Origin: an uncultured bacterium
Lineage (GTDB): Bacteria > Bacillota > Clostridia > Oscillospirales > CAG-272
Assembly (NCBI GenBank): GCA_949293405.1
Contig: CASFDI010000015.1
Span: forward strand, 1-39,452
DNA length: 39,452 nt
Direction of reading: 5' to 3'
This document shows positions 9,393 to 25,284 of the stretch, one piece after another. A program made the translations under genes and the position numbers. Position 1 is the first letter of the stretch, and every line of letters begins with the position of its first letter. The notes beneath the pieces were generated by a model, which did not search any database, had not been told where the DNA came from, and worked only from the letters and a program-made list of their open reading frames with translations.

Positions 9393-10934
9393 ATGAAAAC
9401 GGCTTATTTTGGAATAGATGCTCTGGCGGACTGTCTGGAAGTGCTGCTGCGCGACGGACATGAGGTGGTCAGGATTTTCACCACGGAAGTGGACGAATAC
9501 GACCGCACGGATAGAATCTGCGCCATAGCAGACCGACAGGGAATCGCCGTGCAGAAGACGCGCGTTTCACAACAGGACATCGCCGATTTGCGCGACATCG
9601 GTGTGGAGCTTACCGTGACTGCAGGCTATCCTTGGAAAATCCCGGTGACCGATGCGTTTATGCAGGTCAATTTGCATCCGGCACTTCTTCCGGAAGGCAG
9701 AGGGCCGTGGCCCATGCCGGTCGCCATCCTGCACGGCAAAGCGTCCGGGGTAACATTGCATAAACTGACGGAAGAATTTGACAAGGGAGACATCCTTTTG
9801 CAGACAAAGATCCCGCTTGCCGAAGGGGAAACCCTTCTCACGCTCGGCGACCGGATTCAGTCCGAAGCGGCACAGTTGCTCGGGATTTTTTTACGGGATC
9901 CGGAAAAATACTGGGCAGAAGCGCGGCCGCAGGGCCACGGCGAATACTGGCCGGAGCCGGACGATTCCGCGCGCACTCTACAGGTCGGTGAGGAAGCGCG
10001 CGTGCGTGCTCTGAAACTGCGTGCGTTCGCCGGATACGGGTGCCTGGTGTACGAAAACGGCATCCCCTGGGTGACCGACGGGGATGGGCAGAAAAAAGAG
10101 CTGTATTTCCGGAAACTGTCTCTTTCCGACCGGCAGAAAACCGAGCGGATCCGGCACAGGTATGCCCCTGCACTTTCCGATTATACTTTTGCACTGCTCT
10201 GGTGCTGGCGACGGCAGATGGCGTTATCTGTCTGTATCGGAGAAGATTTTTTTGTTGTCAAGGGAGAGGGATATTACTTTTTTCCCATTGGGTCGGCCGA
10301 AAAAACGGTGTATTTCCTGAGGGAACTGCTGAAGCGTGAAAAAGTGGTTCTGCGTTTTTGCGACGAGCAGGCAAAGGCGGTGATCCTGCGGGAATTTCCT
10401 GCGTCCGCCTGTCGTCTCTGTGAAGACGACTGCGACTATGTGATCGAAAACAGACAACTGCACGATCTGCCCGGCGGGGAACTGATGCGGCGCAGAAACG
10501 ATCTTCACCATTACATCCATCTGGATCCTCCCCCTGTTGCCGAGCCGATCACACGGCAGAATCTGGCGGAGGCGGCCGCTCTCTCCGAGCGAATCCGGCT
10601 TACGGGCAGCGCAGACGGCGACGCCGAACGGGAAGCCTTCCGTCATTTTTTCGATCTCGGGCTGAAAGGGGTCCTGATACGCCGGGGAGGGGTCGTCGGA
10701 TTTGCAGTCGGCTCGGAAAAAGACGCGCACACCCTGCAGGGACATTTCAGCAAATGCACCGAACGCGTGCGCGGCGCATCGCTCTTTGCCATTCGCAGCT
10801 GTTCCGATCTGATGGCAGATCAGTATGAATATACCAATCTCGAGGACGATATGGGAAGCGCGGGGCTGAGGACCTTCAAGCGTTCCCTGAAGGCGCAGGT
10901 CGTTCCGTCCTATACGATTGAATTGAGGCAGTAA
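9393..10934 (+). CDS. Formyltransferase / DUF2156 fusion protein
   Basis: 513 aa. Residues 1-190 form a formyl-transferase N domain of the methionyl-tRNA formyltransferase type: NLHPALLPEGRG gives Asn93 and His95, and EFDKGDILL gives Asp130, the usual Asn/His/Asp catalytic set. Residues about 255-513 look like DUF2156, the GNAT-like fold of phosphatidylglycerol lysyltransferases: LSDYTFALLWCWR, DYVIENRQLHDLPGG, RRRNDLHHY, LGLKGVLIRRGGVVGFAVG and NLEDDMGSAGLRTFKRS. DUF2156 enzymes can use aminoacyl-tRNA as donor. Joining a formyl donor domain to such a fold is unusual. It sits inside a RiPP locus, so it may modify a peptide, lipid or transported molecule. The substrate is unknown. The upstream ribosome-binding site is weak. 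Confidence 0.8.
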   Translation: MKTAYFGIDALADCLEVLLRDGHEVVRIFTTEVDEYDRTDRICAIADRQGIAVQKTRVSQQDIADLRDIGVELTVTAGYPWKIPVTDAFMQVNLHPALLPEGRGPWPMPVAILHGKASGVTLHKLTEEFDKGDILLQTKIPLAEGETLLTLGDRIQSEAAQLLGIFLRDPEKYWAEARPQGHGEYWPEPDDSARTLQVGEEARVRALKLRAFAGYGCLVYENGIPWVTDGDGQKKELYFRKLSLSDRQKTERIRHRYAPALSDYTFALLWCWRRQMALSVCIGEDFFVVKGEGYYFFPIGSAEKTVYFLRELLKREKVVLRFCDEQAKAVILREFPASACRLCEDDCDYVIENRQLHDLPGGELMRRRNDLHHYIHLDPPPVAEPITRQNLAEAAALSERIRLTGSADGDAEREAFRHFFDLGLKGVLIRRGGVVGFAVGSEKDAHTLQGHFSKCTERVRGASLFAIRSCSDLMADQYEYTNLEDDMGSAGLRTFKRSLKAQVVPSYTIELRQ

Positions 10935-12633: not shown

Positions 12634-14274
12634 ATGAAACAGAGAATGATTTCGCTGCGGATGAAACTGTTACTGGCCATTGCTCTGCTGGTGCTTGTGC
12701 TGAGTACTGTGGTCGTGTGTGTGAGCTATTTTACATACCGCAATACCATGAACGAGCATTACGAAACGCTTGGAGAAAATATTGCGCGGACCGCGATCTC
12801 CCTGATGGATGAGGAGCAAATGCGCATGTTCAAAAACGGTGTATTTGAGGGCGGCGAAGCGGTTATGCAGACGGCAGAGTATCGGAATGTCCTGTCTTTG
12901 CTCAAGGATATCAAAAACAGCAACGATGTGCTGTACCTCTACATGATCTATCCCACCGAACAAGGATCCTACTTTCTGTTTGATACCGACGAATCCGAGG
13001 AGTCCTGCCCGTACGGCTTCTTTATGGAATATTACGAGGGAAGTTTCGATTCCATTGTCGGGGATCTGGTGGCAGGGAACCGTGTTCCTGCCGTCATTTC
13101 GGATGAAGAATACGGTTGGATCATCAGCATCTCCTATCCGTATAAAAGCAGTGACGGCGAACTGCTCGGCTATGTCTGTGCGGATATACCGATGGACAAT
13201 GTGGTGCGGGACCGGCAGAACTACCTGCTCACCACCCTGCTGCTTCTGGCGGGCGTTACGGCGGCATTTGCCGTACTGTACTATATTCTGTTCAATTATG
13301 TTTTCGTCCGTCCCATCAAGAGAATGGCGGGTGCGGCAGCCGAATTCGTATCCGGCGGGCAGGATGGGGAATTCTCATCCTCTATCGCATCGCTGTCCGT
13401 GCGCTCGCACGATGAGTTGCGGCTGCTGTGCAACTCGATGAAAACCATGGAACAGAACATCCGGGAATATGTCAATAACCTGCGGGAAGTGACATCGGAG
13501 AAAGAGCGCATCGGCGCGGAGCTGGATGTGGCCCGGCATATTCAATCCTCCATGCTGCCCTGCATTTTCCCGGCATTTCCGGAGCGCAGGGAATTCGATA
13601 TCTACGCAACCATGACTCCGGCGAAGGAAGTGGGCGGCGATTTTTACGACTTCTTTATGGTGGACGAGCGGCATCTTGCCATTGTAATGGCAGATGTCTC
13701 AGGAAAGGGCGTGCCCGCCGCACTGTTCATGGTCATCGGAAAAACGCTGATCAAGGACCATACCACTCCCGGCAGAGATCTCGGGGAGGTATTTGGTGAG
13801 GTCAACAGACTGCTGTGCGAGAGCAACAGTGAAGGACTGTTCATCACCGCGTTTGAGGGCGTGCTGGACCTTTTCACAGGAGAATTCCGGTTCGTGAACG
13901 CCGGACACGAAATGCCGTTTATCGGACGGAAGAATGTCTTCCATCCTGAAAAAATACGGCCCGGCTTTGTTCTGGCGGGCATGGAGGAAATGCGGTACCG
14001 TTCAGGCGTACTGTACCTGGATGCAGGAGATAAGCTGTTCCAGTACACGGACGGTGTGACAGAGGCCACAGACGCGGCCAACACGCTGTACGGCATGGAG
14101 AGACTGGAAGCAACCCTTTCCGCTCACGGAGCAGATACCCCGCAACAGATCTGCGAAGCGGTCAAAGAGGATATTGACGCCTTCGTGAAGGACGCACCGC
14201 AGTTTGACGATATCACCATGCTTTGTCTGGAGTTCAAGGAAAAAATGCAGGCAGAAAAGGAGGAAGGACAATGA
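12634..14274 (+). CDS. Membrane sensor with HAMP and SpoIIE/RsbU-type PP2C phosphatase
   Basis: 546 aa. One transmembrane helix at about 10-33, an extracellular sensor domain (about 35-190), a second helix (about 195-220), HAMP (about 222-275), then a coiled-coil signalling helix ending DVARHIQSSMLP. The phosphatase follows with GGDFYDFF (about 334), ADVSGKGVPAALF (about 352), QYTDGVTEATD (about 470) and DDITMLCLEF near the end; the acidic residues that bind metal are present. It should dephosphorylate the STAS protein of 9060-9356 in response to an outside signal, shifting the HATPase partner. The stop overlaps the next start (ATGA), coupling it to the kinase. Confidence 0.92.
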   Translation: MKQRMISLRMKLLLAIALLVLVLSTVVVCVSYFTYRNTMNEHYETLGENIARTAISLMDEEQMRMFKNGVFEGGEAVMQTAEYRNVLSLLKDIKNSNDVLYLYMIYPTEQGSYFLFDTDESEESCPYGFFMEYYEGSFDSIVGDLVAGNRVPAVISDEEYGWIISISYPYKSSDGELLGYVCADIPMDNVVRDRQNYLLTTLLLLAGVTAAFAVLYYILFNYVFVRPIKRMAGAAAEFVSGGQDGEFSSSIASLSVRSHDELRLLCNSMKTMEQNIREYVNNLREVTSEKERIGAELDVARHIQSSMLPCIFPAFPERREFDIYATMTPAKEVGGDFYDFFMVDERHLAIVMADVSGKGVPAALFMVIGKTLIKDHTTPGRDLGEVFGEVNRLLCESNSEGLFITAFEGVLDLFTGEFRFVNAGHEMPFIGRKNVFHPEKIRPGFVLAGMEEMRYRSGVLYLDAGDKLFQYTDGVTEATDAANTLYGMERLEATLSAHGADTPQQICEAVKEDIDAFVKDAPQFDDITMLCLEFKEKMQAEKEEGQ

Positions 14275-14675
14275 AGGAGCTGACGGTTGACGCAACGGTG
14301 GAAAACATCGCTATAGTCACAGACTTTGTAAATGCACAGCTGGAAGACCTTGGCTGTCCGGTGAAAGTGCAGATGCAGATTGATATTGCCATTGATGAAT
14401 TATTCGGCAATATCGCGCATTACGCCTATGACCCGGATGTCGGTCCTGCTACCGTCCGTGTGGAAGTCGATGAAGAGCCGTGCGTTATCATTACCTTTAT
14501 CGACAACGGCGTGCCGTACGACCCACTCAAGCGTGCGGATCCCGACACCACGCTGTCTGCGGAAGAGCGGGAAATCGGCGGGCTTGGTGTTTACATGGTC
14601 AAAAAAAGCATGGATGATATTTCCTACGAATATCGCAACGGACAAAATATTCTGCGCATCAAAAAGCGTATCTGA
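14271..14675 (+). CDS. RsbW/SpoIIAB-like HATPase, anti-sigma kinase type
   Basis: 134 aa. The ATG at 14271 overlaps the phosphatase stop and has AAAGGAGGAAGG just upstream. N-box IDELFGNIAHYAY (Glu43, Asn47), G1 box FIDNGVPYDP (Asp78, Gly80) and G2 box IGGLGVYMVKK are intact, so ATP binding and serine kinase activity are expected. In known systems such kinases hold a sigma factor or other target until the unphosphorylated STAS protein displaces it. The neighbours supply the STAS protein, the phosphatase and, at the end of the locus, a sigma factor. That sigma factor looks ECF-like, not SigB/SigF-like, so the real target is uncertain. Confidence 0.9.
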   Translation: MKELTVDATVENIAIVTDFVNAQLEDLGCPVKVQMQIDIAIDELFGNIAHYAYDPDVGPATVRVEVDEEPCVIITFIDNGVPYDPLKRADPDTTLSAEEREIGGLGVYMVKKSMDDISYEYRNGQNILRIKKRI

Positions 14676-14701: not shown

Positions 14702-15181
14702 ATGGAAAAGCAGATCTTCCGGGAAAAAAGTGTCGAAAGGGTATCTTCACCCGAACAGCTGAACGATTACATACGGGTATCCAATCCTTCTGTCTGGATG
14801 ACCCTGGCGGCGATTATCGTGCTGCTGGTTGGGGTTTGCGTATGGGGGATACTGGGACGGCTGGAAACCACGGTAAGCGTTGCCGCGCTTGCCGGGGACG
14901 GATCGGTCGTCTGTTATGTGAAAGAGGCAGATGCCAGGGAGATCGCCAGCGGCATGACGGTGCGCATCGGTGAGAACCAGTTCACAGTACAGACTATCTC
15001 CGCATCCCCTGTCACGGTCGCACAGGGCGGGCCGTTCAGCGACTACCTTCTGCATGTGGGCGGCCTGCAGGTTGGCGAGTGGGTATACGAGGTTGTTCTG
15101 GACGGGAATCTGGCGGACGGCGTGTATGCCGCGGAGATTGTGGTGGACAGTGTCTCGCCTATGTCGTTTGTCCTGAATTGA
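14702..15181 (+). CDS. Short NHLM-type HlyD-like secretion adaptor
   Basis: 159 aa. The N-terminus (VERVSSPEQLNDYIRVSNPS) and the one transmembrane helix that follows (about 37-58) match the start of HlyD-like adaptors from Nif11/NHLP-type peptide export loci. The rest is a small beta-rich domain. The long coiled-coil hairpin and lipoyl parts of full-length HlyD proteins (usually more than 400 aa) are missing, and the ends flow together without a break, so this is a reduced form, not a frameshift. A short adaptor makes sense in a one-membrane cell with no outer-membrane channel to reach. It lies just before the exporter genes with a strong ribosome-binding context (AAAAGGAG). Confidence 0.75.
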   Translation: MEKQIFREKSVERVSSPEQLNDYIRVSNPSVWMTLAAIIVLLVGVCVWGILGRLETTVSVAALAGDGSVVCYVKEADAREIASGMTVRIGENQFTVQTISASPVTVAQGGPFSDYLLHVGGLQVGEWVYEVVLDGNLADGVYAAEIVVDSVSPMSFVLN

Positions 15182-15190: not shown

Positions 15191-17383
15191 ATGGAAACGA
15201 AAAAGAAAACCGGAAAGAAGAAAATAAAGGCGCCGCTGACGAAGGGAGTAGCCAAAGTGCCTGTCGTCATGCAGATGGAAGCACTGGAATGCGGCGCCGC
15301 TTCGCTGACCATGGTTCTGGCGTATTACGGAAAATGGGTGCCTCTGGAACAGGTGCGCGCGGATTGCGGCGTTTCGCGTGACGGCTCAAACGCCAAAAAT
15401 GTACTCAAAGCGGCGCGAAGCTACGGATTGGTCGCCAAGGGATATCGCTATGAGCCGGAGGATCTGAAAAAAAACGGCAAATTCCCCTGCATCATCCATT
15501 GGAATTTCAACCATTTTCTGGTGCTGGACGGCTTCAAGGGCAACAAGGCATACCTGAACGACCCCGCGAAGGGCAACTACGCGGTTTCGATGGAAACATT
15601 TGACCGATCTTTTACGGGTATCTGTCTGATGTTCGAGCCGGATGAAAACTTTGAGCCGGGCGGCAAACCCAAGAGCATCCTTGCCTTCGCGAGAAAGCGG
15701 TTGGTCGGAGCGGGGGCGGCGGTGACCTTTGTGGTGCTGACCACTGTCATAGCCTCTCTGCTCGGGATCATTCAGCCTGCTTTTTCACGGATTTTCCTGG
15801 ACCGGCTTCTCACCGGGAAAAATCCAGAATGGTTCTATCCCTTCCTGGGGGCGCTGGCTCTGATGGCGGTGGTGCAGCTGGTCATGGCATGGATCCAGGC
15901 GGTATGGTCCCTTCGGATCAACGGGAAAATGTCGGTGACAGGCAGCGCGTCGTTCATGTGGAAAGTACTGCGTATGCCGATGGAATTCTTTTCACAGCGT
16001 ATGGCGGGAGATATTCAGATGCGGCAGGGGTCCAATGCGAGCATTGCGGGGTCCCTGGTAAACACTTTTGCACCGCTGATACTGGACGCAATCATGATGG
16101 TGTTTTATCTCGTGGTCATGATACGCTACAGCTGGATCCTGACGCTCATCGGCATTGCCTCCATTATTGTCAATATGCTCGTGGCGCGGCTGATCTCGAA
16201 GAAGCGGGTCAACATCACCCGCGTGCAGATGCGCGATGCAGGAAAGCTTGCGAGCGCGTCGGTTGCGGGCATCGAGATGATCGAGACCATCAAGGCCAGC
16301 GGCGCTGAAAACGGATACTTTGAAAAATGGGCGGGGTATCAGGCAAGCGTCAACACGCAGAAGGTGAAGTTTTCGCGCCTCAACCAGTATCTGGGCCTGA
16401 TTCCTTCCTTTGTTTCCGAACTTTCAAACACGGCCGTCCTGATTATCGGCGTGTGGCTTACCATGCGCGGGCAGTTTACGGTAGGTATGATCATGGCATT
16501 CCAGGGATTCCTGGGCTCCTTTACCGCTCCCGCACAGAAACTGATTTCCGCCGGGCAGACTCTGCAGGAGATGCGCACCGAGATGGAGCGGGTGGAGGAT
16601 GTCATGGAGTATCCCACGGATGTCGAATTCGAAGATGCGCAGCAGGACGCCGAATACGACAAACTCAGCGGCCTTGTGGAACTGAAGAATGTCACCTTCG
16701 GCTATTCCAGACTGGCGGCACCGCTGATCGAAAACTTCAACCTGACGCTGAAGCCGGGCAGCCGAGTGGCGTTTGTCGGTTCATCAGGGTGCGGCAAGTC
16801 CACTCTTTCAAAACTCATATCCGGCTTATATAAACCCTGGAGCGGCGAGATCCTGTTCGACGGAAAGCCGATCTCTGAAATAGACCGCAGCGTGTTTACC
16901 GGCTCCTTGGCGGTGGTGGATCAGGATATTATTCTCTTCGAGGACACCATTGCCAACAATATCAAGATGTGGGATACTTCCATCGAGGATTTTGAGATGA
17001 TCATGGCTGCGCGCGACGCGAAACTGCATGAGGACATCATGCAGCGTGAAGGCGGATATCAGTATAAGATCACCGAAGGAGGTAAGGATTTTTCGGGCGG
17101 CCAGCGACAGAGAATGGAGATCGCGCGCGTGCTGGCGCAGGATCCCACCATCATTATTATGGATGAGGCGACAAGCGCCCTGGATGCGAAAACCGAATAC
17201 GAGGTCGTAAATTCGATCAAGGAGCGGGGCATCACCTGCATTGTCGTAGCGCACAGACTGTCCACGGTGCGGGACTGTGACGAAATCATTGTAATGGATA
17301 ATGGAAAAGTGATAGAACGCGGGACCCACGAACAGCTTTATGCGCTGGGCGGTGCGTATGCAAAACTCATTTCCAATGATTAA
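15191..17383 (+). CDS. ABC exporter with C39 leader peptidase (PCAT type)
   Basis: 730 aa. Residues about 20-150 are a C39 peptidase: Gln28 and Cys34 in VMQMEALECGAASLTMV, His108 in NFNHFLVLDGF, Asp124 in YLNDPAKG, a complete catalytic set. A six-helix membrane domain follows (about 175-450), then the nucleotide-binding domain with Walker A GSSGCGKST (about 530), signature SGGQRQR (about 635), Walker B IIIMDEATSALD and the H-loop VVAHRLS. Such proteins cut precursor peptides after a Gly-Gly motif and export the core. All seven downstream precursors end their leaders in GlyGly, so they are the evident substrates. It is the first of two ABC genes, 9 bp apart, matching the paired NHLM export arrangement. 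Confidence 0.93.
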   Translation: METKKKTGKKKIKAPLTKGVAKVPVVMQMEALECGAASLTMVLAYYGKWVPLEQVRADCGVSRDGSNAKNVLKAARSYGLVAKGYRYEPEDLKKNGKFPCIIHWNFNHFLVLDGFKGNKAYLNDPAKGNYAVSMETFDRSFTGICLMFEPDENFEPGGKPKSILAFARKRLVGAGAAVTFVVLTTVIASLLGIIQPAFSRIFLDRLLTGKNPEWFYPFLGALALMAVVQLVMAWIQAVWSLRINGKMSVTGSASFMWKVLRMPMEFFSQRMAGDIQMRQGSNASIAGSLVNTFAPLILDAIMMVFYLVVMIRYSWILTLIGIASIIVNMLVARLISKKRVNITRVQMRDAGKLASASVAGIEMIETIKASGAENGYFEKWAGYQASVNTQKVKFSRLNQYLGLIPSFVSELSNTAVLIIGVWLTMRGQFTVGMIMAFQGFLGSFTAPAQKLISAGQTLQEMRTEMERVEDVMEYPTDVEFEDAQQDAEYDKLSGLVELKNVTFGYSRLAAPLIENFNLTLKPGSRVAFVGSSGCGKSTLSKLISGLYKPWSGEILFDGKPISEIDRSVFTGSLAVVDQDIILFEDTIANNIKMWDTSIEDFEMIMAARDAKLHEDIMQREGGYQYKITEGGKDFSGGQRQRMEIARVLAQDPTIIIMDEATSALDAKTEYEVVNSIKERGITCIVVAHRLSTVRDCDEIIVMDNGKVIERGTHEQLYALGGAYAKLISND

Positions 17384-17392: not shown

Positions 17393-19603
17393 ATGGGTTG
17401 GTTTGACGAACAGATAAAACAGAGGAAACAGAACGATGACGAAATGTTTGCCGAAGCCTTCGCGGGTATCGCGGGTGCGGTGACCGGAGAAAAGATTTCG
17501 GCGCTCAGCAGCGATGCCCAGAAAACCAAAAACGCTGTCGGCGAAATTTTACAGTATTATCGCGTCAAGCCGTGCGAGGTGCCCGATTCGGTAAAGGACA
17601 TCAACGAGCGGCTGGAATACCTGTTGCGGCCATACGGTATCATGCGCCGCACGGTCAGACTGGAAAAGGGATGGTATAAGGAAGCGGTCGGCGCGATGCT
17701 TGCGATTAAAAAATCAGACGGATCCGCCGTAGCGCTGATCCCGTCCGGATTTTCCGGCTATACCTATTTCGATGCAGAAAAAGGTAAACGGGTGCGTGTC
17801 GGGAAAAAAACGCAGCTTCTGTTCGAAGACGAGGCGATTGCCTTTTATGCCTCGTTCCCACTTAAAAAGATCGGGATCAGGGATCTGGTGATCCATATCG
17901 TCAAGTCTCTGTCGGGCGCCGATTTTGTACTGATCGGACTGGCAACGCTGGCGGTTACACTGATCGGAATGCTTACCCCCCGCTTGACCAACCTCCTCTT
18001 CTCCGACATTCTGGAGAGCAGCAGTCCGCGGTTGCTGTTGGCAGTCGCGGTCTTCATGATATGCGTGTCCCTCAGCACGCTTCTGATCAGCGGGGTCAAG
18101 GCGCTCCTGATGGCACGCATCAATACGAAAATGGGCCTGTCGGTGCAGGCCGCCACCATGATGCGCATTCTGTCTCTGCCTGCAGATTTCTTTAAAGAAT
18201 ACAGCGCCGGGGATCTTGCGTCGCGTGCCGGCAGTGTACAGTCCTTGTGTAGCATGCTGATTTCAGCCGTGCTCTCGACCGGGCTTTCATCGGTGTTTTC
18301 CTTGGTTTATATCGGGCAGATTTTCACCTATGCGCCGGCGCTTGTTGTGCCCGCGCTTCTGGTGATCCTCGCTACCATTGCGGTTTCCGTTATCACGACC
18401 TTCGTTCAGCTGAGGGTAAGCAGACAGCAGATGAAACTCGGCGCGGAAGAAAGCGGTCTGACCTATGCGCTTATCTCAGGCGTACAGAAGATCAAACTCG
18501 CCGGTGCGGAAAAGCGCGCCTTCGCAAAATGGGGGAATCACTTTGCCGCTGAAGCGCGCCTCGAATACAATCCCCCCGCCTTTATTAAACTGAACGCTGT
18601 CATCACCACCGCGCTTTCTCTGGCGGGTACCATTATCATGTACTATTTCGCGGTGACAAGCGGAGTCACGGTTGCCGACTACTATGCGTTCAATACCGCT
18701 TACGGTATGGTGACCGGTGCGTTCATGGCGCTTGCAAGTATCGCACTGATGGCGGCTAATATCAAGCCCGTGCTTGAGATGATCAAACCTATCCTGGACA
18801 CCTGCCCGGAAATATCAGAGGGAAAGCGCGTAATTGAGCGCCTTTCCGGCGGTATTGAACTCAACAATGTGAGCTTCCGTTACAATGAAAGCATGCCGCC
18901 CGTTGTGGATAATCTGTCCCTGAAGATCCGGCCGGGACAGTATGTCGCGCTTGTCGGCGCAACCGGATGCGGGAAATCCACGCTGATGCGCCTGATGCTC
19001 GGCTTCGAAACGCCGCAGAAGGGCGCGGTCTATTACGACGGAAAAGATCTTTCGACCATTGATCTGAAATCTCTGCGCCGCAGAATCGGCGTAGTGATGC
19101 AGAACGGCAAACTGTTTTCAGGCGATGTGTTTTCCAATATCACCATTTCCGCACCCTGGCTGACGCTGAACGATGCCTGGGAGGCCGCGGAGCTTGCGGG
19201 CATTGCCGATGATATCCGGCGTATGCCGATGGGGATGCACACCATCATTTCCGAAGGCTCCGGCGGGGTATCGGGCGGTCAGCGGCAGCGCCTGATGATT
19301 GCCCGTGCAATCGCCCCGAAACCGAAAGTGCTGATGTTCGACGAGGCGACGAGCGCGCTCGATAATCTCACGCAGAAGAGGGTCTCTGAAAGTCTTGACC
19401 AACTGAAATGTACGCGGATCGTGATTGCCCACAGACTTTCCACCATCCGGCGCTGCGACCGCATCATCTATCTGGAAGGCGGGAAGATCATTGAGGATGG
19501 CACTTACGATGAACTGATTGCAAAAGACGGTAAATTTGCCGAGCTTGTCGCCCGCCAGAGACTGGATGATACCGAGTATATCGGGAAAACTACACTTTTC
19601 TGA
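17393..19603 (+). CDS. Second NHLM-type ABC exporter, without peptidase
   Basis: 736 aa. The first ~150 residues are a soluble domain unlike C39 (YKEAVGAMLAIKKSDGSAVA, then GFSGYTYFD), typical in place of the peptidase in the second ABC protein of NHLM loci. The membrane domain spans about 165-445. The nucleotide-binding domain has GATGCGKST (about 522), VSGGQRQRLM (about 626), VLMFDEATSALD and IAHRLS, all intact. It probably pairs with the C39 exporter as a heterodimer or works in parallel. The gene is separated from the first precursor by 132 bp containing a strong hairpin, perhaps to set different expression levels. Confidence 0.9.
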   Translation: MGWFDEQIKQRKQNDDEMFAEAFAGIAGAVTGEKISALSSDAQKTKNAVGEILQYYRVKPCEVPDSVKDINERLEYLLRPYGIMRRTVRLEKGWYKEAVGAMLAIKKSDGSAVALIPSGFSGYTYFDAEKGKRVRVGKKTQLLFEDEAIAFYASFPLKKIGIRDLVIHIVKSLSGADFVLIGLATLAVTLIGMLTPRLTNLLFSDILESSSPRLLLAVAVFMICVSLSTLLISGVKALLMARINTKMGLSVQAATMMRILSLPADFFKEYSAGDLASRAGSVQSLCSMLISAVLSTGLSSVFSLVYIGQIFTYAPALVVPALLVILATIAVSVITTFVQLRVSRQQMKLGAEESGLTYALISGVQKIKLAGAEKRAFAKWGNHFAAEARLEYNPPAFIKLNAVITTALSLAGTIIMYYFAVTSGVTVADYYAFNTAYGMVTGAFMALASIALMAANIKPVLEMIKPILDTCPEISEGKRVIERLSGGIELNNVSFRYNESMPPVVDNLSLKIRPGQYVALVGATGCGKSTLMRLMLGFETPQKGAVYYDGKDLSTIDLKSLRRRIGVVMQNGKLFSGDVFSNITISAPWLTLNDAWEAAELAGIADDIRRMPMGMHTIISEGSGGVSGGQRQRLMIARAIAPKPKVLMFDEATSALDNLTQKRVSESLDQLKCTRIVIAHRLSTIRRCDRIIYLEGGKIIEDGTYDELIAKDGKFAELVARQRLDDTEYIGKTTLF

Positions 19604-19735: not shown

Positions 19736-20149
19736 ATGGAGCTGAGCAAAGACATGCTCGGGAAGGCAAAAGAAGCAAAAAGTCCTGAGCAGCTGTCGGC
19801 ACTTGCCAAGGAGAACGGCGTGGAACTGACAGCAGAAGAAGCGGAAGAATATTTTGCACAGATGCATAAAGAAGGTGAGCTTTCCGATGAGGAGTTGGAT
19901 CATGTTTCCGGAGGAGGCTGCCACAAGAAGGACGGCAGACTGATCGTTACCACCCGATACGGCTGTGATCTGTGGGCCTGTACGCATTGCGGAAGCACAA
20001 AGGTGTACAACTCACTGTCAGGAGGACAGCAGATGCATTGCTGCATCAGTCCCACCCCGGTCCTCAATCCGGGCACCTGTTCTTCCTGTAAATTCATGTC
20101 GTATGAGAAAGGCCTATGGCTTTGCAATCACCCAGAAAATACAAAATAA
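19736..20149 (+). CDS. Nif11-type RiPP precursor 1
   Basis: 137 aa. The ATG at 19736 has GGGGAGG upstream. Leader residues 1-60 follow the Nif11-like pattern (KEAKSPEQLSALAKENGVEL, then GELSDEELDHVSGG), with the predicted C39 cut after Gly60. The core starts GCHKKDGRLIVT and has nine Cys: Cys62, a YGC, the pair CTHCG, an extra CC, the pair CSSCK, and a last Cys in GLWLCNHP. About 28 residues lie between the two CxxC pairs, the longest loop of the set. The paired CxxC arrangement resembles a zinc ribbon, so the product might bind metal or carry radical-SAM-made crosslinks. Confidence 0.9.
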   Translation: MELSKDMLGKAKEAKSPEQLSALAKENGVELTAEEAEEYFAQMHKEGELSDEELDHVSGGGCHKKDGRLIVTTRYGCDLWACTHCGSTKVYNSLSGGQQMHCCISPTPVLNPGTCSSCKFMSYEKGLWLCNHPENTK

Positions 20150-20166
20150 CATATCAGGAGGGAATT

Positions 20167-20571
20167 ATGGGAAACGAATTATTTGATCAGGCGAAAGCGG
20201 CAAAGAGCGCTGAGGAACTGCAGAGCATCGCCAAAGAAAACGGCGTTGAGCTTTCCGATCAGGAGGCCGCGGAGTATTTTGCGCAGATGCACAAGGCCGG
20301 GGAGCTTTCCGATGATGAACTGGATCATGTTTCGGGAGGAGGCTGCCACAAGAAGGACGGCAGACTGGTCGTTTCCATGGGTTACCACTGCGATCAGTGG
20401 ACGTGCGTTCATTGCGGAAGGAGCAACATCTTCAATTCAGATGTGAACGGACAGATCCATTATTGTCCCAACGGCGACATGGTCAGAAACCCGCGTTCCT
20501 GTGCTACCTGCAAATTCAAGTCGGTTGAAAAAGGACTCTGGATTTGCAACCACCCCGAAAACACGAAGTGA
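20167..20571 (+). CDS. Nif11-type RiPP precursor 2
   Basis: 134 aa; AGGAGGG lies 7 nt before the ATG at 20167, only 17 bp after precursor 1. The leader ends DDELDHVSGG with the cut after Gly58. The core starts GCHKKDGRLVVS and has eight Cys: Cys60, YHC, CVHCG, one loop Cys, one just before the second pair (SC), ATC completing CATCK, and GLWICNHP. The inter-pair loop is about 27 residues (SNIFNSDVNGQIHY in its first half). It closes a two-gene group ended by a terminator at 20696-20716. Confidence 0.9.
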   Translation: MGNELFDQAKAAKSAEELQSIAKENGVELSDQEAAEYFAQMHKAGELSDDELDHVSGGGCHKKDGRLVVSMGYHCDQWTCVHCGRSNIFNSDVNGQIHYCPNGDMVRNPRSCATCKFKSVEKGLWICNHPENTK

Positions 20572-20600
20572 CAACTCAGACGGGGACAAGGGACGGCGAA

Positions 20601-20660
20601 TGATCGGAACAGGCGAAGGGGCCAAAGAGTGTCGGGAAATCGCCGGGCACAGCACATGCC
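20601..20660 (+). pseudogene. Possible trace of a lost Nif11 leader
   Basis: In the frame starting GAA at 20607 the DNA reads EQAKGPKSVGKS, close to the leader start of precursors 2 and 5 (DQAKAAKSAEEL, EQARATKSPEEL). Similarity fades before 20660 and the hairpin/terminator follows. It may be the stump of another precursor gene, but it is short. Confidence 0.3.
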
Positions 20661-20674
20661 GAAGCATGGGTGCG

Positions 20675-20694
20675 CGCTCATTCAGAAATGAGCG
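20675..20694 (+). other. Perfect hairpin upstream of the terminator
   Basis: CGCTCATT (20675-20682) pairs perfectly with AATGAGCG (20687-20694) across CAGA. It stacks directly against the next terminator hairpin and may protect the 3' end of the precursor 1-2 transcript. Confidence 0.6.
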
Positions 20695-20695
20695 G

Positions 20696-20716
20696 AACCG
20701 CGTTCTGCGGTTTTTT
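20696..20716 (+). terminator. Terminator after precursor 2
   Basis: AACCGC (20696-20701), GTTCT loop, GCGGTT (20707-20712), then further T. It lies inside the precursor array, 125 bp after precursor 2 and 36 bp before precursor 3. Confidence 0.75.
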
Positions 20717-20751
20717 ACTACAAATCAAAATGATTAATGGGGGTCATACAG

Positions 20752-21156
20752 ATGGATCAGAAGGAGTTATTTGAAAAGGCGAAGGCCGCCGCAAGTGCAC
20801 AGGAGTTGTTGACACTCGCCAAAGAAAACGGTGTGGAACTGACTGAAGAAGAAGCGGCGGATTATTTTGCACAGATGCATAAAAGCGGCGAACTTTCCGA
20901 TGAGGAGCTGGATCATGTTGCAGGCGGCGGCTGCCATAAAAAGGACGGCCGGCTGATTGTCACCATGTTCTATAGCTGCAGTGGGTTTACCTGCATGTAT
21001 TGCGGCAAGCAGAGCATGGAGGAGCATCGTCATGCGATCAATCTTCCGAGCGGTCAGTTCAACCGTATCACGGTCACGCCCATGTGCAATTACTGCAAAT
21101 ACTTTAAGACCGAACGGGGATTGAGAGTATGCAACAATCCCATCAACTGTAAATAA
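20752..21156 (+). CDS. Nif11-type RiPP precursor 3
   Basis: 134 aa. The ATG at 20752 (MDQKELF) is chosen over the in-frame ATG at 20737 because GGGGGT lies about 10 nt before it. The leader ends EELDHVAGG with the cut after Gly59. The core starts GCHKKDGRLIVT and has eight Cys: Cys61, YSC, CMYCG, CNYCK, GLRVCNNP and a unique Cys next to the C-terminal Lys (INCK). The loop of about 26 residues carries an EHRHA motif. Trp of the common GLW motif is replaced by Arg. Confidence 0.9.
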   Translation: MDQKELFEKAKAAASAQELLTLAKENGVELTEEEAADYFAQMHKSGELSDEELDHVAGGGCHKKDGRLIVTMFYSCSGFTCMYCGKQSMEEHRHAINLPSGQFNRITVTPMCNYCKYFKTERGLRVCNNPINCK

Positions 21157-21186
21157 CCGGCGCAAGAGGCCGGCAGGGATTCCGCT

Positions 21187-21411
21187 TCTCCGAAGAAAGC
21201 GAAAGAAACGAAGCACACGGAAAAAATACCGTGCACGCCAAAGGGAGGACATGGGCGTGACTTTGGACGAAGCAGCTGAGTATTCCGGCCAGGTGCAAGG
21301 AGAGGGAACACTTCTGATGAGGAAGCGGACCATGTATCGGGAGGCGTGCACCGGACGAAAATGCATTGCCCGGGATACGGACCTGTCGTGCGGCAGGTCG
21401 GTCCGGGATGA
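21187..21411 (+). pseudogene. Decayed Nif11 precursor between precursors 3 and 4
   Basis: Three frames together retrace a leader. Near 21190 the DNA reads PKKAKETK, matching MEKAKETK of precursor 6. From 21251 another frame reads GVTLDEAAEYSGQ, matching GVELTEEEAADYFAQ. From 21313 a third reads SDEEADHVSGGVH, matching SDEELDHVSGGGCH. At least two frameshifts, an altered GG-C junction (GGVH) and loss of KKDGRL show it is dead. The order and spacing match an intact leader; the core is unrecognisable before the TGA at 21409. Confidence 0.8.
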
Positions 21412-21436
21412 AACCAGTTGAGGAGATACAGAGAAA

Positions 21437-21817
21437 ATGGAACTGAACGAAGAACTTCTGAAGAAAGCCGCGAAAGCGAAGAGTGCCGAAGAACTGCGCT
21501 CGCTCGCCATGGAAAACGGCATGGAACTGACCGACGCGGAAGCGGCCGGATACTTTGCAGAGATACATAAAGAGGGGGAGCTTTCTGACGAAGAACTGGA
21601 CGGTGTCGCGGGGGGCGGCTGTCACAGGAAGGACGGCAGACTGGTTGTGACGGTCATGCACAACTGTGATCTGTTCACCTGCAAGCAGTGCGGCAAGACG
21701 GGGGTGCATTGGCATTCATCTTCAAGGAGCAACCAGTACCCGCGCTGCGACGACTGCAAGTACTGCACCTATGAGTCGGGGCTGTGGTTGTGCAACAATC
21801 CCGGCAATAGGAAGTAA
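21437..21817 (+). CDS. Nif11-type RiPP precursor 4
   Basis: 126 aa; GAGGAG lies about 12 nt before the ATG at 21437. The leader ends EELDGVAGG plus Gly61, with the cut after Gly60. The core starts GCHRKDGRLVVT, the only one with Arg in the KK position. Eight Cys: Cys62, HNC, CKQCG, CDDCK, an extra Cys two residues later (KYC), and GLWLCNNP. The loop is short (about 17 residues) with VHWHSSSR. It follows a dead precursor copy and starts the second dense run of precursors. Confidence 0.9.
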   Translation: MELNEELLKKAAKAKSAEELRSLAMENGMELTDAEAAGYFAEIHKEGELSDEELDGVAGGGCHRKDGRLVVTVMHNCDLFTCKQCGKTGVHWHSSSRSNQYPRCDDCKYCTYESGLWLCNNPGNRK

Positions 21818-21839
21818 AGTCGAAGTCCGGAGGAACATC

Positions 21840-22247
21840 ATGGAACTGAGCAAAGAACTGCTGGAACAGGCAAGGGCGACGAAGAGTCCGGAGGAGCTTT
21901 TGTCGCTCGCAAAAGAAAACCGCGTGGAACTGAATGAAGAGGAAGCGGCCGCTTATTTTGCAGAGATGCATAAGAGCGGCGAACTCTCCGATGAGGAGCT
22001 GGACGGTGTCTCGGGAGGCGGCTGCCACAAGAAGGATGGCAGACTGGTCGTCACGATATGGTATGGCTGTGACGAATTTGTCTGCAGTTACTGCGGACGC
22101 AACCATACAGAGACACACGCCCATTCGATCCCGCAGTCAAACGGCACGGTCCAACGCTCCTATTTTCCTCCCAACTGCCATTACTGCAAATATATATCCT
22201 ATGAGGGCGGTCTGTGGCTGTGCAACAATCCTTCAAAAATCAAATAA
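21840..22247 (+). CDS. Nif11-type RiPP precursor 5
   Basis: 135 aa; CGGAGG lies 7 nt before the ATG at 21840, and the gap to precursor 4 is 22 bp. The leader ends EELDGVSGG with the cut after Gly60. The core starts GCHKKDGRLVVT with the seven shared Cys only: Cys62, YGC, CSYCG, CHYCK, GLWLCNNP. The loop of about 26 residues includes HTETHAHS. This and precursor 6 show the minimal full cysteine pattern of the family. Confidence 0.9.
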   Translation: MELSKELLEQARATKSPEELLSLAKENRVELNEEEAAAYFAEMHKSGELSDEELDGVSGGGCHKKDGRLVVTIWYGCDEFVCSYCGRNHTETHAHSIPQSNGTVQRSYFPPNCHYCKYISYEGGLWLCNNPSKIK

Positions 22248-22262
22248 TATCAGGAGAGAGTC

Positions 22263-22643
22263 ATGGAACTGAACAAAGAGTTGATGGAAAAGGCAAAAGA
22301 GACAAAGAGTGCGCAGGAACTTTTGTCGCTTGCCAAGGAAAACGGTGTGGAGTTGACCCAGGAAGAGGCGACGGCTTATTTTGCAGAGATGCATCAGAGC
22401 GGTGAGCTTTCCGATGAGGAACTGGATCATGTGTCAGGCGGCGGCTGCCATAAGAAGGATGGCAGATTGGTTGTAACGGTCCGGTACAGTTGTGAACATT
22501 TTGTCTGTAAACACTGCGGCAGAGAAGACTCGCCGAATCATAAGCATGCTGGTGTGCCGATATCTCCCGGGTGTGATATTTGCAAGCATATGTCCTATGA
22601 AGGCGGTCTGTGGCTTTGCAATCATCCTGCTAACAGGAAATGA
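22263..22643 (+). CDS. Nif11-type RiPP precursor 6
   Basis: 126 aa; AGGAGAG lies just upstream of the ATG at 22263, 15 bp after precursor 5. The leader carries EKAKETKSAQELLSLAKENG and ends EELDHVSGG with the cut after Gly60. The core starts GCHKKDGRLVVT with seven Cys (Cys62, YSC, CKHCG, CDICK, GLWLCNHP). The loop is about 17 residues and reads NHKHAGVP in its centre. Its leader is the best match to the decayed copy at 21187-21411. Confidence 0.9.
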   Translation: MELNKELMEKAKETKSAQELLSLAKENGVELTQEEATAYFAEMHQSGELSDEELDHVSGGGCHKKDGRLVVTVRYSCEHFVCKHCGREDSPNHKHAGVPISPGCDICKHMSYEGGLWLCNHPANRK

Positions 22644-22687
22644 AATGGATGTACAATGTAAAACAAAAAATGTTCTCGGAGGGAAAC

Positions 22688-23023
22688 ATGGACTACAAGG
22701 AATTGTTTGAAAAGGCAAAAGAGGCAAAGAGCGCCGAAGAGCTCATCGTGCTTGCAAAAGAAAACGGCGCGGAGCTGACCGAGGAAGAGGCGGCGGACTA
22801 TTTTACACAGTTGCATCAGAGCGGCGAGCTCTCCGATGAGGAGCTGGACCATGTATCGGGCGGCGGCTGTCACAATAAGGACGGCAGACTGATCGTCACC
22901 GAGTTCTACAGCTGCGAACATGCCGTTTATACAAAAATCAACTATTCCTCCTGCGTTACTTGCAAATATTCGTCCTATGAAAAGGGCTTGCGGCTTTGCA
23001 ATCACCCCGCGAACAGAAAATAA
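22688..23023 (+). CDS. Nif11-type RiPP precursor 7, short form
   Basis: 111 aa. The ATG at 22688 (MDYKELF) has GGAGGG upstream and is preferred over an in-frame ATG at 22640 that overlaps precursor 6. The leader ends EELDHVSGG with the cut after Gly59. The core starts GCHNKDGRLIVT, then YSCEHAVYTKINYSSC. The first CxxC pair and the whole hypervariable loop are absent, leaving five Cys (Cys61, YSC, CVTCK, GLRLCNHP). It cannot form the ribbon suggested for the others, so it may be a different product or a helper peptide. The frame is intact. Confidence 0.88.
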   Translation: MDYKELFEKAKEAKSAEELIVLAKENGAELTEEEAADYFTQLHQSGELSDEELDHVSGGGCHNKDGRLIVTEFYSCEHAVYTKINYSSCVTCKYSSYEKGLRLCNHPANRK

Positions 23024-23179: not shown

Positions 23180-24580
23180 ATGAACTATATTCTGAATCCG
23201 AATATCGCATTGCGCAGCTGGCGGCTGGTGCCGTATGCCTATTATATCAGACACCGGCGGGACGCATGCGGGCTTTCGCGTGAGGAATTCGAACTGCTGA
23301 GCCGCTGTGACGGTACGGAAGAGCTGGAGGAGAGCGAACTGCTGCACCGGCTGACTGAATCGGGTATGGTGCGTCCATGCACAGGCGGGGAGCTGCTGAC
23401 CGACTGGCAGAAGCCGAGATCCTGCGACAACCGCTATTTTCCATCGATGAGCGTGATGATCACAGGCAAATGCAACTACAATTGCCTGCACTGCTTCAAT
23501 GCGGCAGACAACGCGCCCCTGATGAGCGAGTTTACACTGGAAGAAGCGGAAAAACTCATCGGAGAAGCGGAAACATGCGGCATCAACGCGGTGACCGTCA
23601 CGGGAGGCGAGCCGATGCTGCATCGGCATTTCTTTGAGATTATCGAAAGCATCTATGCGCACGGCATGTATGTGCGCGAACTCAATACCAACGGATTCTT
23701 CATCGATGATGATGCGCTTGCAAGACTGAAGGCGATTGACGGTGATATCCGCATCAAGATTTCTTTTGACGGCATCGGTCATCACGACTGGCTCCGCAAC
23801 CGCAAGGGCGCGGAAGAGAACGCACTGCGCGCCATCCGGCTTTGCGTGAAGTACGGGTTCTTCACGCAGGTGCAGACCAATGTGCACCGGAAGAATATCG
23901 ATACACTGCTGCAGACGGCGGAGCAGATGGACGACATGGGCGTGGAGCACATGCGCATCATCCGCACGACAGAAGCACCGCGCTGGCTGCAGAATGCGGA
24001 CGGCGCAACGCTCGGAATCGGCGAATATTATGATACCATGTTTGACTTTCTGCGTGCGTATATCCAAAAGCCGCACAGGATGAGCCTCGATATCTGGCAG
24101 GTCGCACAGGTTTATCCCGACATCAAAAGTTACCGCGCCCGCCCGGTGGAGTGTGCGGAAGGGGAGTACAAGGACAGCATTCCGGTCTGCCGCGGAAACC
24201 GCGGAATGGTCTCTGTCGATGCTGACGGGAATGTGGTGCCCTGTCATCAGCTTTCGGGTTACTACGCCCAGCACGGCCTCTGTCTCGGCAATGTGAAGAA
24301 GGAGGGGCTCCAGCCGCTTCTGCAGGCAGGGAACTATATCGGCGAGGTCTGCGCCACGCTCGGACAGCTGAAAGCGTCCAACGAAAAGTGCGCTTCGTGC
24401 CGGTATTTCCGCTATTGCGCAGGAGGGTGCCGCGCCATTGCACTTGCGTTCACGCATGATAAGTTCGGAACAGATCCGTCCAAATGCGAATTCTTCAAAA
24501 ACGGCTACTATGAAAAACTGGTGTCCGCCATGGGGGATTGGCGGAATCTCGCGCCGGTTTCCTGTGATGAAGGGGAATGA
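23180..24580 (+). CDS. Radical SAM/SPASM peptide-modifying enzyme
   Basis: 466 aa. The ATG at 23180 has CGAGG upstream. Residues about 1-85 form a small domain (RLVPYAYYIRHRRDACGLS, then EFELLSRCDGTEEL) that may be a PqqD-like recognition element for the leader. Cys98, Cys102 and Cys105 in GKCNYNCLHCF bind the SAM iron-sulfur cluster, and TGGEPMLH (141-148) contacts SAM. The C-terminal SPASM region has VVPCHQ, then CASCRYFRYCAGGC (CX2CX5CX3C) and a final KCEFF, fitting two auxiliary clusters. Relatives make thioether or carbon-carbon crosslinks in RiPPs (sactipeptide, ranthipeptide and similar). The Cys-rich precursors just upstream are the likely substrates. The exact chemistry cannot be read from sequence. 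Confidence 0.92.
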   Translation: MNYILNPNIALRSWRLVPYAYYIRHRRDACGLSREEFELLSRCDGTEELEESELLHRLTESGMVRPCTGGELLTDWQKPRSCDNRYFPSMSVMITGKCNYNCLHCFNAADNAPLMSEFTLEEAEKLIGEAETCGINAVTVTGGEPMLHRHFFEIIESIYAHGMYVRELNTNGFFIDDDALARLKAIDGDIRIKISFDGIGHHDWLRNRKGAEENALRAIRLCVKYGFFTQVQTNVHRKNIDTLLQTAEQMDDMGVEHMRIIRTTEAPRWLQNADGATLGIGEYYDTMFDFLRAYIQKPHRMSLDIWQVAQVYPDIKSYRARPVECAEGEYKDSIPVCRGNRGMVSVDADGNVVPCHQLSGYYAQHGLCLGNVKKEGLQPLLQAGNYIGEVCATLGQLKASNEKCASCRYFRYCAGGCRAIALAFTHDKFGTDPSKCEFFKNGYYEKLVSAMGDWRNLAPVSCDEGE

Positions 24581-24581: not shown

Positions 24582-24788
24582 ATGAAAAACAGATTGGATA
24601 GATTGCGGGGGCTGTTCGATTATCAGCGCTTTGCAGGCAACAGGCACCTTGCGGCGCTTATCGAGCAGACCACAACCATGCATGCCGAATCGCTTTCCGA
24701 CGAGGATCTGGAACATGTAAGCGCAGCCGGAGAGATCAATACGGCGCGCACCGGCAAGAAAGATGAAGAATGCAATGGCGACGAGTGA
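24582..24788 (+). CDS. 68-aa leader-like peptide ending in an AAG motif
   Basis: The ATG follows the radical SAM stop by one base with AAGGGG upstream. Residues 38-50 read LSDEDLEHVSAAG, parallel to LSDEELDHVSGG of the Nif11 precursors but with Ala-Ala-Gly in place of Gly-Gly. The N-terminal part (LRGLFDYQRFAGNRHLAALI) differs from the Nif11 leaders. The tail after AAG is 18 residues, acidic and basic, with one Cys. It could be another precursor type, a decoy/chaperone leader, or an inactive relic. Its 3' end overlaps the sigma gene. Confidence 0.65.
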   Translation: MKNRLDRLRGLFDYQRFAGNRHLAALIEQTTTMHAESLSDEDLEHVSAAGEINTARTGKKDEECNGDE

Positions 24789-25284
24789 ATATACAGCGGA
24801 ACGCACAATGGAGCGCATATACCGGGAGTTCAGCGACAAGGTGCTGCGGTATGCGCGCTCAAAAATATCCGATCTGCACGATGCGGAAGATGTCTGCTCC
24901 ACAGTTTTTCTGAGGGTACAGCAGGGGCTGCCGCGTTACGACAGCGCGAAAGCCTCTCTTTCCACATGGATCTATTCGATCGCCCGCAATACGGTCGCTG
25001 ATTTTTACAGACATACGCGCGCGGTGGAGCCGCTGAACGAGGAAATCGTCTGTTGTGAGGAAGACGGGCTGGAGAATCTGTACAACGATGAAACGCTGGA
25101 GGCGCTTGCCGCTGCATTGGAGAGCCTGCCCAAGCGTGAAAGCGATATCATCGTATTGCACTATTATTCCGGTAAACAACTCAAAGAGATCGCAGTACTG
25201 ATGAAAATGTCCTATTCAAACATCAAATCACTGCACAAAAAGGCGCTTGCGCACTTAAAGAAATTACTGCAATTCCGGTTGTGA
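24763..25284 (+). CDS. ECF-like RNA polymerase sigma factor
   Basis: 173 aa from the ATG at 24763; ATGs at 24775 and 24808 are alternative starts. Region 2 is clear (YREFSDKVLRYARSKISD, then HDAEDVCSTVFLRV and STWIYSIARNTVADFYR). Region 4 follows (LPKRESDIIVLHYYSGKQLK, then MSYSNIKSLHKKALAHLKKL). There is no region 3, so it is ECF type. It overlaps the 68-aa peptide gene, suggesting coupled translation, and closes the RiPP block. It may drive the precursor genes. Classical partner-switching kinases hold SigB/SigF-type factors with region 3, so direct capture by the HATPase of 14271-14675 would be unusual. Confidence 0.88.
   Translation: MKNAMATSEYTAERTMERIYREFSDKVLRYARSKISDLHDAEDVCSTVFLRVQQGLPRYDSAKASLSTWIYSIARNTVADFYRHTRAVEPLNEEIVCCEEDGLENLYNDETLEALAAALESLPKRESDIIVLHYYSGKQLKEIAVLMKMSYSNIKSLHKKALAHLKKLLQFRL

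What the first reader, a model, noticed from the sequence alone, without database searches (positions are those of the whole stretch)
19736..23023. Seven Nif11-type precursors with fixed ends and a hypervariable, often His-rich loop framed by CxxCG...CxxCK
All intact copies share a near-identical leader and the core start GCHKKDGRL[IV]V[TS]. Six also share the pair CxxCG ... CxxCK and the end GL[WR][LIV]CN[HN]P. Between the two pairs lie 17-28 residues that differ completely among copies; four loops carry His clusters (EHRHA, THAHS, NHKHA, HWHS). This looks like a conserved metal-ribbon-like scaffold presenting a variable loop, diversified by gene duplication. Such a product class (a secreted, possibly metal-binding or radical-SAM-modified mini zinc ribbon) is not one I recognise.
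Basis: partly seen in the sequence, partly recalled or inferred. Interest (0 to 1): 0.92.

Follow-up and report, generated by a model that had tools for sequence, protein, structure and literature searches.

The report
Exported mini-proteins with paired metal sites
An unnamed bacterium related to gut Clostridia carries seven linked genes for small proteins, apparently exported, that look built around one or two bound metal ions, beside a radical enzyme whose presence goes with a single cysteine at the start of each product; this mixes a known peptide-export system with an unusual, protein-like cargo.

Summary
In detail: seven intact Nif11-leader precursors lie at 19736-23023, clustered with an NHLM exporter (first subunit with a C39 peptidase) and an unassigned radical SAM/SPASM enzyme. 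The loop is not arbitrary. With relatives from other Clostridia, loops show an enriched ligand pair [H/C]-x-[H/C] (45 seen, 15.0 expected in 69 loops; no other spacing of 1-7 is enriched). The core thus has eight ligand-like positions, best read as two nested metal sites: B (C16, C43, C46, C58) and, inside it, A (C21, C24, loop pair). Copy 7 lacks all of A and keeps all of B; several relatives look alike.

The enzyme does not track this fold. It tracks a cysteine directly after the GG site, also in unrelated cores (mini zinc ribbons, single-Cys and hydrophobic cores): Cys lies within three residues of the junction in 39 of 48 cores of enzyme-seeded loci, 1 of 24 of exporter-seeded loci without the enzyme.

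I read it as leader-guided export of small metal-structured proteins whose N-terminal cysteine the enzyme probably modifies. Metal, modification and bioactivity are untested. The duplications are old (synonymous sites near saturation), with no sign of recent adaptive loop diversification.

The parts
19736..20149 (+). precursor copy 1: Nif11 leader + core CHKKDGRL...; loop pair H-C-C
20167..20571 (+). precursor copy 2; loop pair H-Y-C
20752..21156 (+). precursor copy 3; loop pair H-R-H
21251..21411 (+). decayed remnant of an eighth copy: leader pieces (LDEAAEY, TSDEEADHVSGG) in two frames
   Evidence: three frames read separately, not joined
21437..21817 (+). precursor copy 4; loop pair H-W-H
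21840..22247 (+). precursor copy 5; loop pair H-A-H
22263..22643 (+). precursor copy 6; core begins with C1 at 22446; C16, C21, C24, H32, H34, C43, C46, C58 are the proposed ligands
22688..23023 (+). precursor copy 7: site A (C21, C24, loop pair) absent; C1 and site B (C16, C43, C46, C58) kept
23180..24580 (+). radical SAM/SPASM enzyme, presumed peptide maturase (CxxxCxxC, SPASM domain, RRE-like N-terminal region by eye)
24582..24788 (+). small leader-like protein ending LSDEDLEHVSAAGE..., conserved beside sigma factors
24763..25284 (+). ECF-type sigma-70 factor (TIGR02937 102.5 bits against 42.9)
15191..17383 (+). NHLM exporter subunit 1 (TIGR03796, 974 bits against cut-off 853) with C39 peptidase domain
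17393..19603 (+). NHLM exporter subunit 2 (TIGR03797, 747 bits against cut-off 709)
14702..15181 (+). short HlyD-like protein; only positions 1-47 of 421 of TIGR03794 match
14271..14675 (+). RsbW-like HATPase (anti-sigma type)
   Evidence: HATPase_c_2
12634..14274 (+). SpoIIE-type PP2C phosphatase

Best explanation
The locus makes and exports small, metal-structured proteins through a RiPP-type route. Step 1: the Nif11 leader is recognised, presumably by the RRE-like N-terminal region of the radical SAM/SPASM enzyme (inferred). Step 2: the enzyme modifies the one residue shared by most of its presumed, very diverse substrates, the cysteine directly after the GG/GGG motif (inferred from association; chemistry unknown, a thioether or an anSME-like Cys oxidation being the nearest precedents by fold). 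Step 3: the C39 peptidase domain of the NHLM ABC exporter cuts at the double glycine and exports the core (domains shown; cleavage and export inferred). Step 4: the core folds around two nested metal sites, probably zinc: B = C16/C43/C46/C58 and A = C21/C24 plus the loop pair [H/C]x[H/C] (inferred from conservation, spacing and the unit-like loss of A). The rest of the A loop is loosely constrained and would be the surface that distinguishes the paralogues. The most likely role is as secreted effectors or signals in gut communities, one exporter and enzyme serving many products. Role and bioactivity are untested.
For: Exporter: TIGR03796, TIGR03797 and Peptidase_C39 above cut-offs. Similar gene order in several other genomes, e.g. 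L009, L011, L012, L014, L026, L029, L035. Core: in 44 aligned cores, C16, C24, C43, C46 and C58 are in 44 of 44, C1 in 43, C21 in 42 with His in the other 2. Loop: [HC]x[HC] in 29 of 44 loops, shuffles 9.0 +/- 2.5, 0 of 2000 reach it; in 69 loops the i,i+2 spacing alone of spacings 1-7 is enriched, 45 against 15.0 +/- 3.4. Cores with the inner [CH]xxC pair have two or more H/C in the loop in 68 of 69 cases, those without in 3 of 8 (Fisher 1.6e-5). Variants read as B-only: copy 7, L011:7494, L012:7510, L014:7115, L016:6039 and two in L095. Sister cores look like ordinary zinc ribbons: eight of ten typed cores give zinc-domain Pfam hits, all below cut-off, best E about 1e-4. Junction Cys within three residues: enzyme-seeded loci 39 of 48 cores, exporter-seeded loci without enzyme 1 of 24, Fisher 1.4e-10; by locus majority 9 of 13 against 0 of 7. 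All loci, before hand exclusions: 114 of 137 against 17 of 80, Cys within four. Non-canonical cores alone 63 of 74, and positions +2 to +6 are not conserved. In genome G552 the array beside the enzyme has 9 of 10, another array 0 of 3. Three genomes whose fetched array lacked the enzyme carry it elsewhere in the genome. Enzyme model pLDDT 93.7; best folds SkfB, SuiB, anSMEcpe, which act on peptide substrates (substrates partly recalled).
Against: Foldseek finds no PDB match for the core model at E 0.001 (best 7.7; model pLDDT 82, block 31-40 only 55), and Pfam hits on 44 cores are weak. 15 of 44 loops lack [HC]x[HC]. Two of the seven B-only variants still have 3 or 4 His/Cys in the loop (L014:7115, L095:2072), and homology of L012:7510 to the canonical core was judged by eye. 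L095 has a close enzyme (452 bits) but 0 of 3 junction Cys; L096 and L111 have 0 of 1. Two genomes with canonical cores have no enzyme hit at E 1e-50 (L102/G088, L027/G1483), and a third (L010) only a fragment at a contig end. 10 of 68 cores in loci without the enzyme still have the Cys. Shared ancestry of leader and enzyme could produce part of the association. No metal, modification or export was measured.
Confidence: 0.55

Rival explanations
1. The cores are sacti- or ranthipeptide-like: the radical SAM enzyme uses all seven conserved cysteines as thioether donors, and the CxxC pattern is a cross-link pattern, not a metal site.
For: Enzyme's nearest folds include SkfB and the sactipeptide enzyme of 5why/5wgg; Nif11 or NHLP leaders with a radical SAM enzyme as only candidate maturase are known (PMC3023750, passages).
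Against: C21 is replaced by His in 2 of 44 cores and the loop pair is H-x-H, H-x-C or C-x-C; His cannot be a thioether donor. Enzyme-linked cores whose only Cys is at the junction exist (L009, L028, L089, L112). Canonical cores occur in two genomes without an enzyme hit.
Confidence: 0.15
2. The products are metallophores or metal buffers: the two sites acquire or store zinc (or copper, nickel, iron) outside the cell rather than build a structural fold.
For: Eight ligand-like positions, His clusters; if cut after the second G, the N-terminus would be Gly-Cys-His in all seven window copies, an ATCUN-like motif (motif recalled; sequence). In L109 two proteins that look like cation efflux transporters by eye lie beside the enzyme.
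Against: The His after C1 is not conserved in relatives; no metal transporter was seen among the window genes annotated (neighbourhoods of relatives were not annotated in full); other enzyme-linked cores have no His/Cys set (L028, L089). That the spacing is typical of structural sites is recalled, not tested.
Confidence: 0.1
3. The junction Cys is a lineage mark of the leader clade that travels with the enzyme, and the enzyme acts elsewhere (or on only some precursors).
For: Leaders are homologous throughout; L095, L096 and L111 break the rule; canonical cores in genomes without an enzyme hit keep C1 (L027, L102).
Against: Position +1 stays Cys while +2 to +6 vary across unrelated cores; a divergent leader-like ORF beside the enzyme in L110 still reads GSC at a similar place (by eye).
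Confidence: 0.25
4. The arrays are undergoing adaptive loop diversification, as in phase- or antigen-variable cassettes.
For: Loop non-synonymous difference 0.60 against 0.17-0.26 in the flanks.
Against: Synonymous differences near saturation in every part (mean pS 0.69-0.90), so copies are old; loop alignment is uncertain. Cassette exchange was not looked for.
Confidence: 0.1

Closest known systems
Nif11-derived precursors (N11P, TIGR03798), e.g. prochlorosins
   Same: Nif11 leader ending in GG, arrays of paralogues with variable cores, NHLM-type exporter
   Different: No LanM or cyclodehydratase seen among the window genes annotated; window cores are 51-76 residue metal-site-like proteins instead of short Cys/Gly/Ser-rich peptides
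Nif11/NHLP clusters with a radical SAM enzyme as only candidate maturase (TIGR04064, TIGR04103; PMC3023750, PMC4289311, passages)
   Same: Leader class, exporter and enzyme superfamily
   Different: This enzyme meets none of the cut-offs of the 25 best NCBIfam families shown (TIGR04103 77.6 against 725 bits; TIGR04064 not among them). Paired metal sites or a junction Cys rule did not appear in titles, abstract starts or passages seen
Zinc ribbons and other small structural zinc folds
   Same: CxxC knuckles, His/Cys exchange at ligand positions
   Different: Ligand order (one Cys, then a nested CxxC + [HC]x[HC] site, then CxxC and a last Cys) was not recognised by Pfam (weak hits only) and matched no PDB fold at E 0.001
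Sactipeptides and ranthipeptides (e.g. ruminococcin C)
   Same: Gut bacteria, SPASM enzyme, Cys-rich core
   Different: Here only the junction Cys is shared by most of the enzyme's presumed substrates

Membership tests
Nif11-like leader RiPP precursor (TIGR03798) | score at or above curated cut-off 32.3 bits | tested here: inconclusive
   1 of 7 copies passes (33.8); six score 26.0-31.1, E 8.2e-6 or better
Nif11-like leader RiPP precursor (TIGR03798) | leader ends in double glycine followed by a variable core | tested here: met
   7 of 7 copies end V[SA]GGG before the core
NHLM export system | TIGR03796 and TIGR03797 above cut-off | tested here: met
   974 against 853 and 747 against 709 bits
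NHLM export system | full HlyD-type subunit TIGR03794 | tested here: not met
   45 against 156 bits, positions 1-47 of 421 only
Radical SAM/SPASM protein | Radical_SAM and SPASM domains, CxxxCxxC | tested here: met
   Pfam above cut-off; C98, C102, C105 invariant in 33 of 33 aligned sequences
RiPP maturase | leader recognition and modification of a precursor | not testable with these tools
   nearest folds SkfB, SuiB, anSMEcpe and gene neighbourhood only; RRE read by eye
Any named NCBIfam radical SAM maturase | equivalog cut-off | tested here: not met
   of 81 families matched the 25 best were shown; none reaches its cut-off
Zinc ribbon / zinc finger (Pfam) | gathering score | tested here: inconclusive
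   44 cores scanned at E 0.05, best E 1.3e-4 in one member; member 1's hits are below cut-off, scores and cut-offs of the others were not shown; full-length window copies have only zinc hits below cut-off
Metalloprotein | bound metal | not testable with these tools
   only ligand pattern, spacing and unit-like loss
Sactipeptide or ranthipeptide | Cys thioether cross-links made by the enzyme | not testable with these tools
   His substitution and single-Cys cores speak against it as a whole-core pattern

The most novel reading that the evidence does not exclude
Clostridia, many from animal guts, run a RiPP-style export platform for folded cargo: one leader-guided radical SAM enzyme edits a single N-terminal cysteine on otherwise unrelated mini-proteins (paired-zinc cores, zinc ribbons, other small cores), giving each exported protein a common reactive or capped N-terminus. 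Modification would then be independent of the core, unlike most known RiPP classes.
Probability: 0.35. Interest if true: 0.85.

Novelty: new variant of a known kind. Interest (0 to 1): 0.66.

Why it matters
It would extend Nif11/NHLM systems from short modified peptides to small metal-structured proteins, offer a compact two-site scaffold with a loosely constrained loop, and point to a radical SAM enzyme whose substrate rule (leader plus one junction Cys) tolerates very different cargo, which is both an open enzymology question and a possible tool.

Tried and rejected
A ribbon-specific maturase was the first idea; rejected because zinc-ribbon-like cores occur without the enzyme (L039, L043, L046) and enzyme-linked cores occur without ribbons (L028, L048, L089). 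A RING-like cross-brace (weak Pfam hits) was rejected because the ligands missing together in copy 7 are the inner CxxC plus loop pair, which a cross-brace would split. Recent duplication with fast loop evolution was rejected on synonymous saturation. Foldseek on the core model gave nothing usable. Searches of plasmid, phage and viral-contig collections gave no relative (with copy 6; with A1). Chemistry could not be inferred from NCBIfam or fold, as SkfB, SuiB and anSMEcpe are all near. The anSME catalytic residue was not checked.

Caveats of counts. One search was seeded partly with the pattern GGGCH[KRN]KD, so junction counts from L009-L057 are biased; the unbiased comparison is the enzyme-seeded against the exporter-seeded part. 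Of 16 enzyme-seeded loci (E 1e-90 or better) 13 entered it: L109 and L115 gave no recognised Nif11 precursor, L110 only a divergent one seen by eye. Of 19 exporter-seeded loci newly fetched, 9 entered: nine had no recognised precursor, and L126, with one weak precursor without Cys, was left out by me. Of those 9, L117 (1 of 1 with Cys) and L132 (0 of 1) were set aside as undetermined because their contigs end near; L117's genome, G358, has the enzyme on another contig. One search also dropped precursors cut by a contig end, those without a parsed GG and repeats. The no-enzyme set (68 cores) leaves out six loci by hand (L010, L016, L020, L023, L030, L117: contig ends or enzyme elsewhere); one search has no such exclusion. 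In one search at least four of the 20 listed failures are parsing errors of the junction (L018, L019, one of L021, one of L038), left uncorrected. leave out six duplicate loci, and one search also L050 and L038; one of its eight cores without the inner pair (L021:2574) is an ordinary ribbon. The B-only list rests on cores picked for an intact C-terminal CxxC...C, so cores with A but without B would have been missed. A2 holds 44 of the 48 cores listed.
Full report
What is there. The window is a whole contig (C15) of an unnamed 1.9 Mb genome, 92.1% complete. Seven intact precursors lie in a row at 19736-23023, with a decayed eighth between copies 3 and 4. Upstream are the two NHLM exporter subunits, the first with a C39 peptidase, a short HlyD-like protein, an RsbW-like HATPase and a SpoIIE-type phosphatase; downstream a radical SAM/SPASM enzyme, a small leader-like protein and an ECF-type sigma factor. 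Several other genomes keep much of this order (L009, L011, L012, L014, L026, L029, L035), others have the enzyme and array without the exporter in the fetched stretch (L015, L017-L019). The family is patchy: 10 of 295 genomes of the taxonomic family match at E 1e-12, the own genome included, and besides it only G088's match spans essentially the whole model (4-134 of 134); the nine other same-genus genomes listed have no match. Record titles of relatives are mostly uncultured Clostridia, Lachnospiraceae, Ruminococcus and similar bins; some name an animal gut source (roe deer caecum, horse faeces, yak rumen; 'Lapin' bins), many name none.

The core. I aligned 44 cores from the window and relatives (48 were listed). 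C16, C24, C43, C46 and C58 are invariant, C1 is in 43, C21 in 42 with His in two. The stretch between C24 and C43 is variable, but 29 of 44 contain [HC]x[HC] against 9.0 +/- 2.5 in shuffles (0 of 2000 reach it). In a larger set of 69 loops, of spacings 1-7 only i,i+2 is enriched (45 against 15.0 +/- 3.4). Window copies 1 and 2 use H-x-C, copies 3-6 H-x-H, several relatives from 'Lapin' bins C-x-C. His/Cys exchange at a fixed spacing is what metal ligands do, and not what thioether donors can do.

Two sites. Which ligands belong together is suggested by natural losses. Copy 7 lacks C21, C24 and the loop pair, and keeps C16, C43, C46 and C58. I read the same kept set in L011:7494, L012:7510, L014:7115, L016:6039 and two cores of L095; of these, L014:7115 and L095:2072 still have 3 and 4 His/Cys in the loop. 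Over 77 cores, the inner [CH]xxC pair goes with two or more loop His/Cys in 68 of 69, its absence in 3 of 8 (Fisher 1.6e-5). Hence a nested site A inside site B. Against this: 15 of 44 loops do not show the pair in that spacing; the AlphaFold model (pLDDT 82, block 31-40 at 55) has no PDB match at E 0.001; and sequence searches give only weak zinc-finger hits (best E 0.006).

The loop's history. Among the six full copies mean synonymous difference is 0.69 (leader), 0.70 (core start) and 0.90 (core end) per site, i.e. near saturation, while non-synonymous difference is 0.17, 0.22 and 0.26 there and 0.60 in the loop. The copies are old, the ends are held, and the loop apart from the ligand pair is loosely constrained. 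Positive selection is not shown.

The enzyme's rule. Enzyme-associated loci contain many cores unlike the canonical one: mini zinc ribbons (L026, L029, L035, L038, L090, L092, L112, L113), a 65-residue core with a single Cys (L028), hydrophobic ones (L048, L114), an acidic one (L089); these labels are by eye, with weak Pfam support for eight ribbons. What most share is a Cys right after the GG run. In loci found by the enzyme 39 of 48 cores have Cys within three residues, 9 of 13 loci by majority; in loci found by the exporter and lacking the enzyme, 1 of 24 cores and 0 of 7 loci. Over all loci, 114 of 137 against 17 of 80 with Cys within four, or, with six loci excluded by hand and within three, 113 of 133 against 10 of 68, and 63 of 74 when canonical cores are left out; positions +2 to +6 are not conserved. 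One genome, G552, holds both kinds: 9 of 10 beside the enzyme, 0 of 3 in the other array. Three arrays that lacked the enzyme on their fetched stretch (L016, L020, L023) have it elsewhere in the genome. Exceptions stand: L095, L096 and L111; and canonical cores in two genomes with no enzyme hit (L027, L102).

The enzyme model is confident (pLDDT 93.7). Its closest solved folds are SkfB (thioether), SuiB (carbon-carbon link) and anSMEcpe (Cys to formylglycine) (anSME and sactipeptide chemistry from PMC8326336 passages, SuiB recalled). They do not decide the chemistry.

Literature. Nif11 leaders with this exporter type and with radical SAM enzymes are known (PMC2887384, PMC3023750, PMC4289311: passages read). 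Searches for Nif11 with zinc ribbon, zinc, metal-binding or rSAM plus cysteine, and for RiPP with zinc ribbon, showed no description of such cores in titles and abstract starts; other papers listed were not opened, and most subscription journals are not held.

Verdict. Export is well supported by domains, metal sites moderately, modification of C1 by association only. Function remains inferred.

Noticed in passing
window 24582-24788: A small protein whose end resembles a Nif11 leader end (LSDEDLEHVSAAGE) belongs to a conserved family; 23 of 26 hits lie within 300 bases of a sigma-factor hit, in loci with and without the radical SAM enzyme (duplicate loci and one fragment included). Possibly a regulator or sensor of leader traffic.
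   Followed up: partly
window 12634-14675 and 24763-25284: SpoIIE-type phosphatase, RsbW-like HATPase and an ECF sigma factor in one cluster suggest partner-switch control; an anti-anti-sigma factor was not among the genes I annotated.
   Followed up: no
window 9393-10934: Fusion of a formyltransferase domain with a phosphatidylglycerol lysyltransferase C-terminal domain; similar genes near arrays in L017, L018, L116.
   Followed up: no
L039, L043, L121: Nif11 cores that look like an amphipathic helix followed by a zinc ribbon, with no radical SAM enzyme found in the locus.
   Followed up: no
window 20692-20718: Terminator-like hairpin with a T run between copies 2 and 3; could divide the array's expression. 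The number of such sites in the region (14) is near the shuffle mean (13.0).
   Followed up: no
L110 11102-11650 (-): A 182-residue ORF beside the enzyme with a divergent leader-like start reading EGSC and a large protein-like core.
   Followed up: no
L109 5407-8250 (+): Two ORFs that look like cation efflux transporters by eye lie just upstream of a sigma factor and the enzyme.
   Followed up: no
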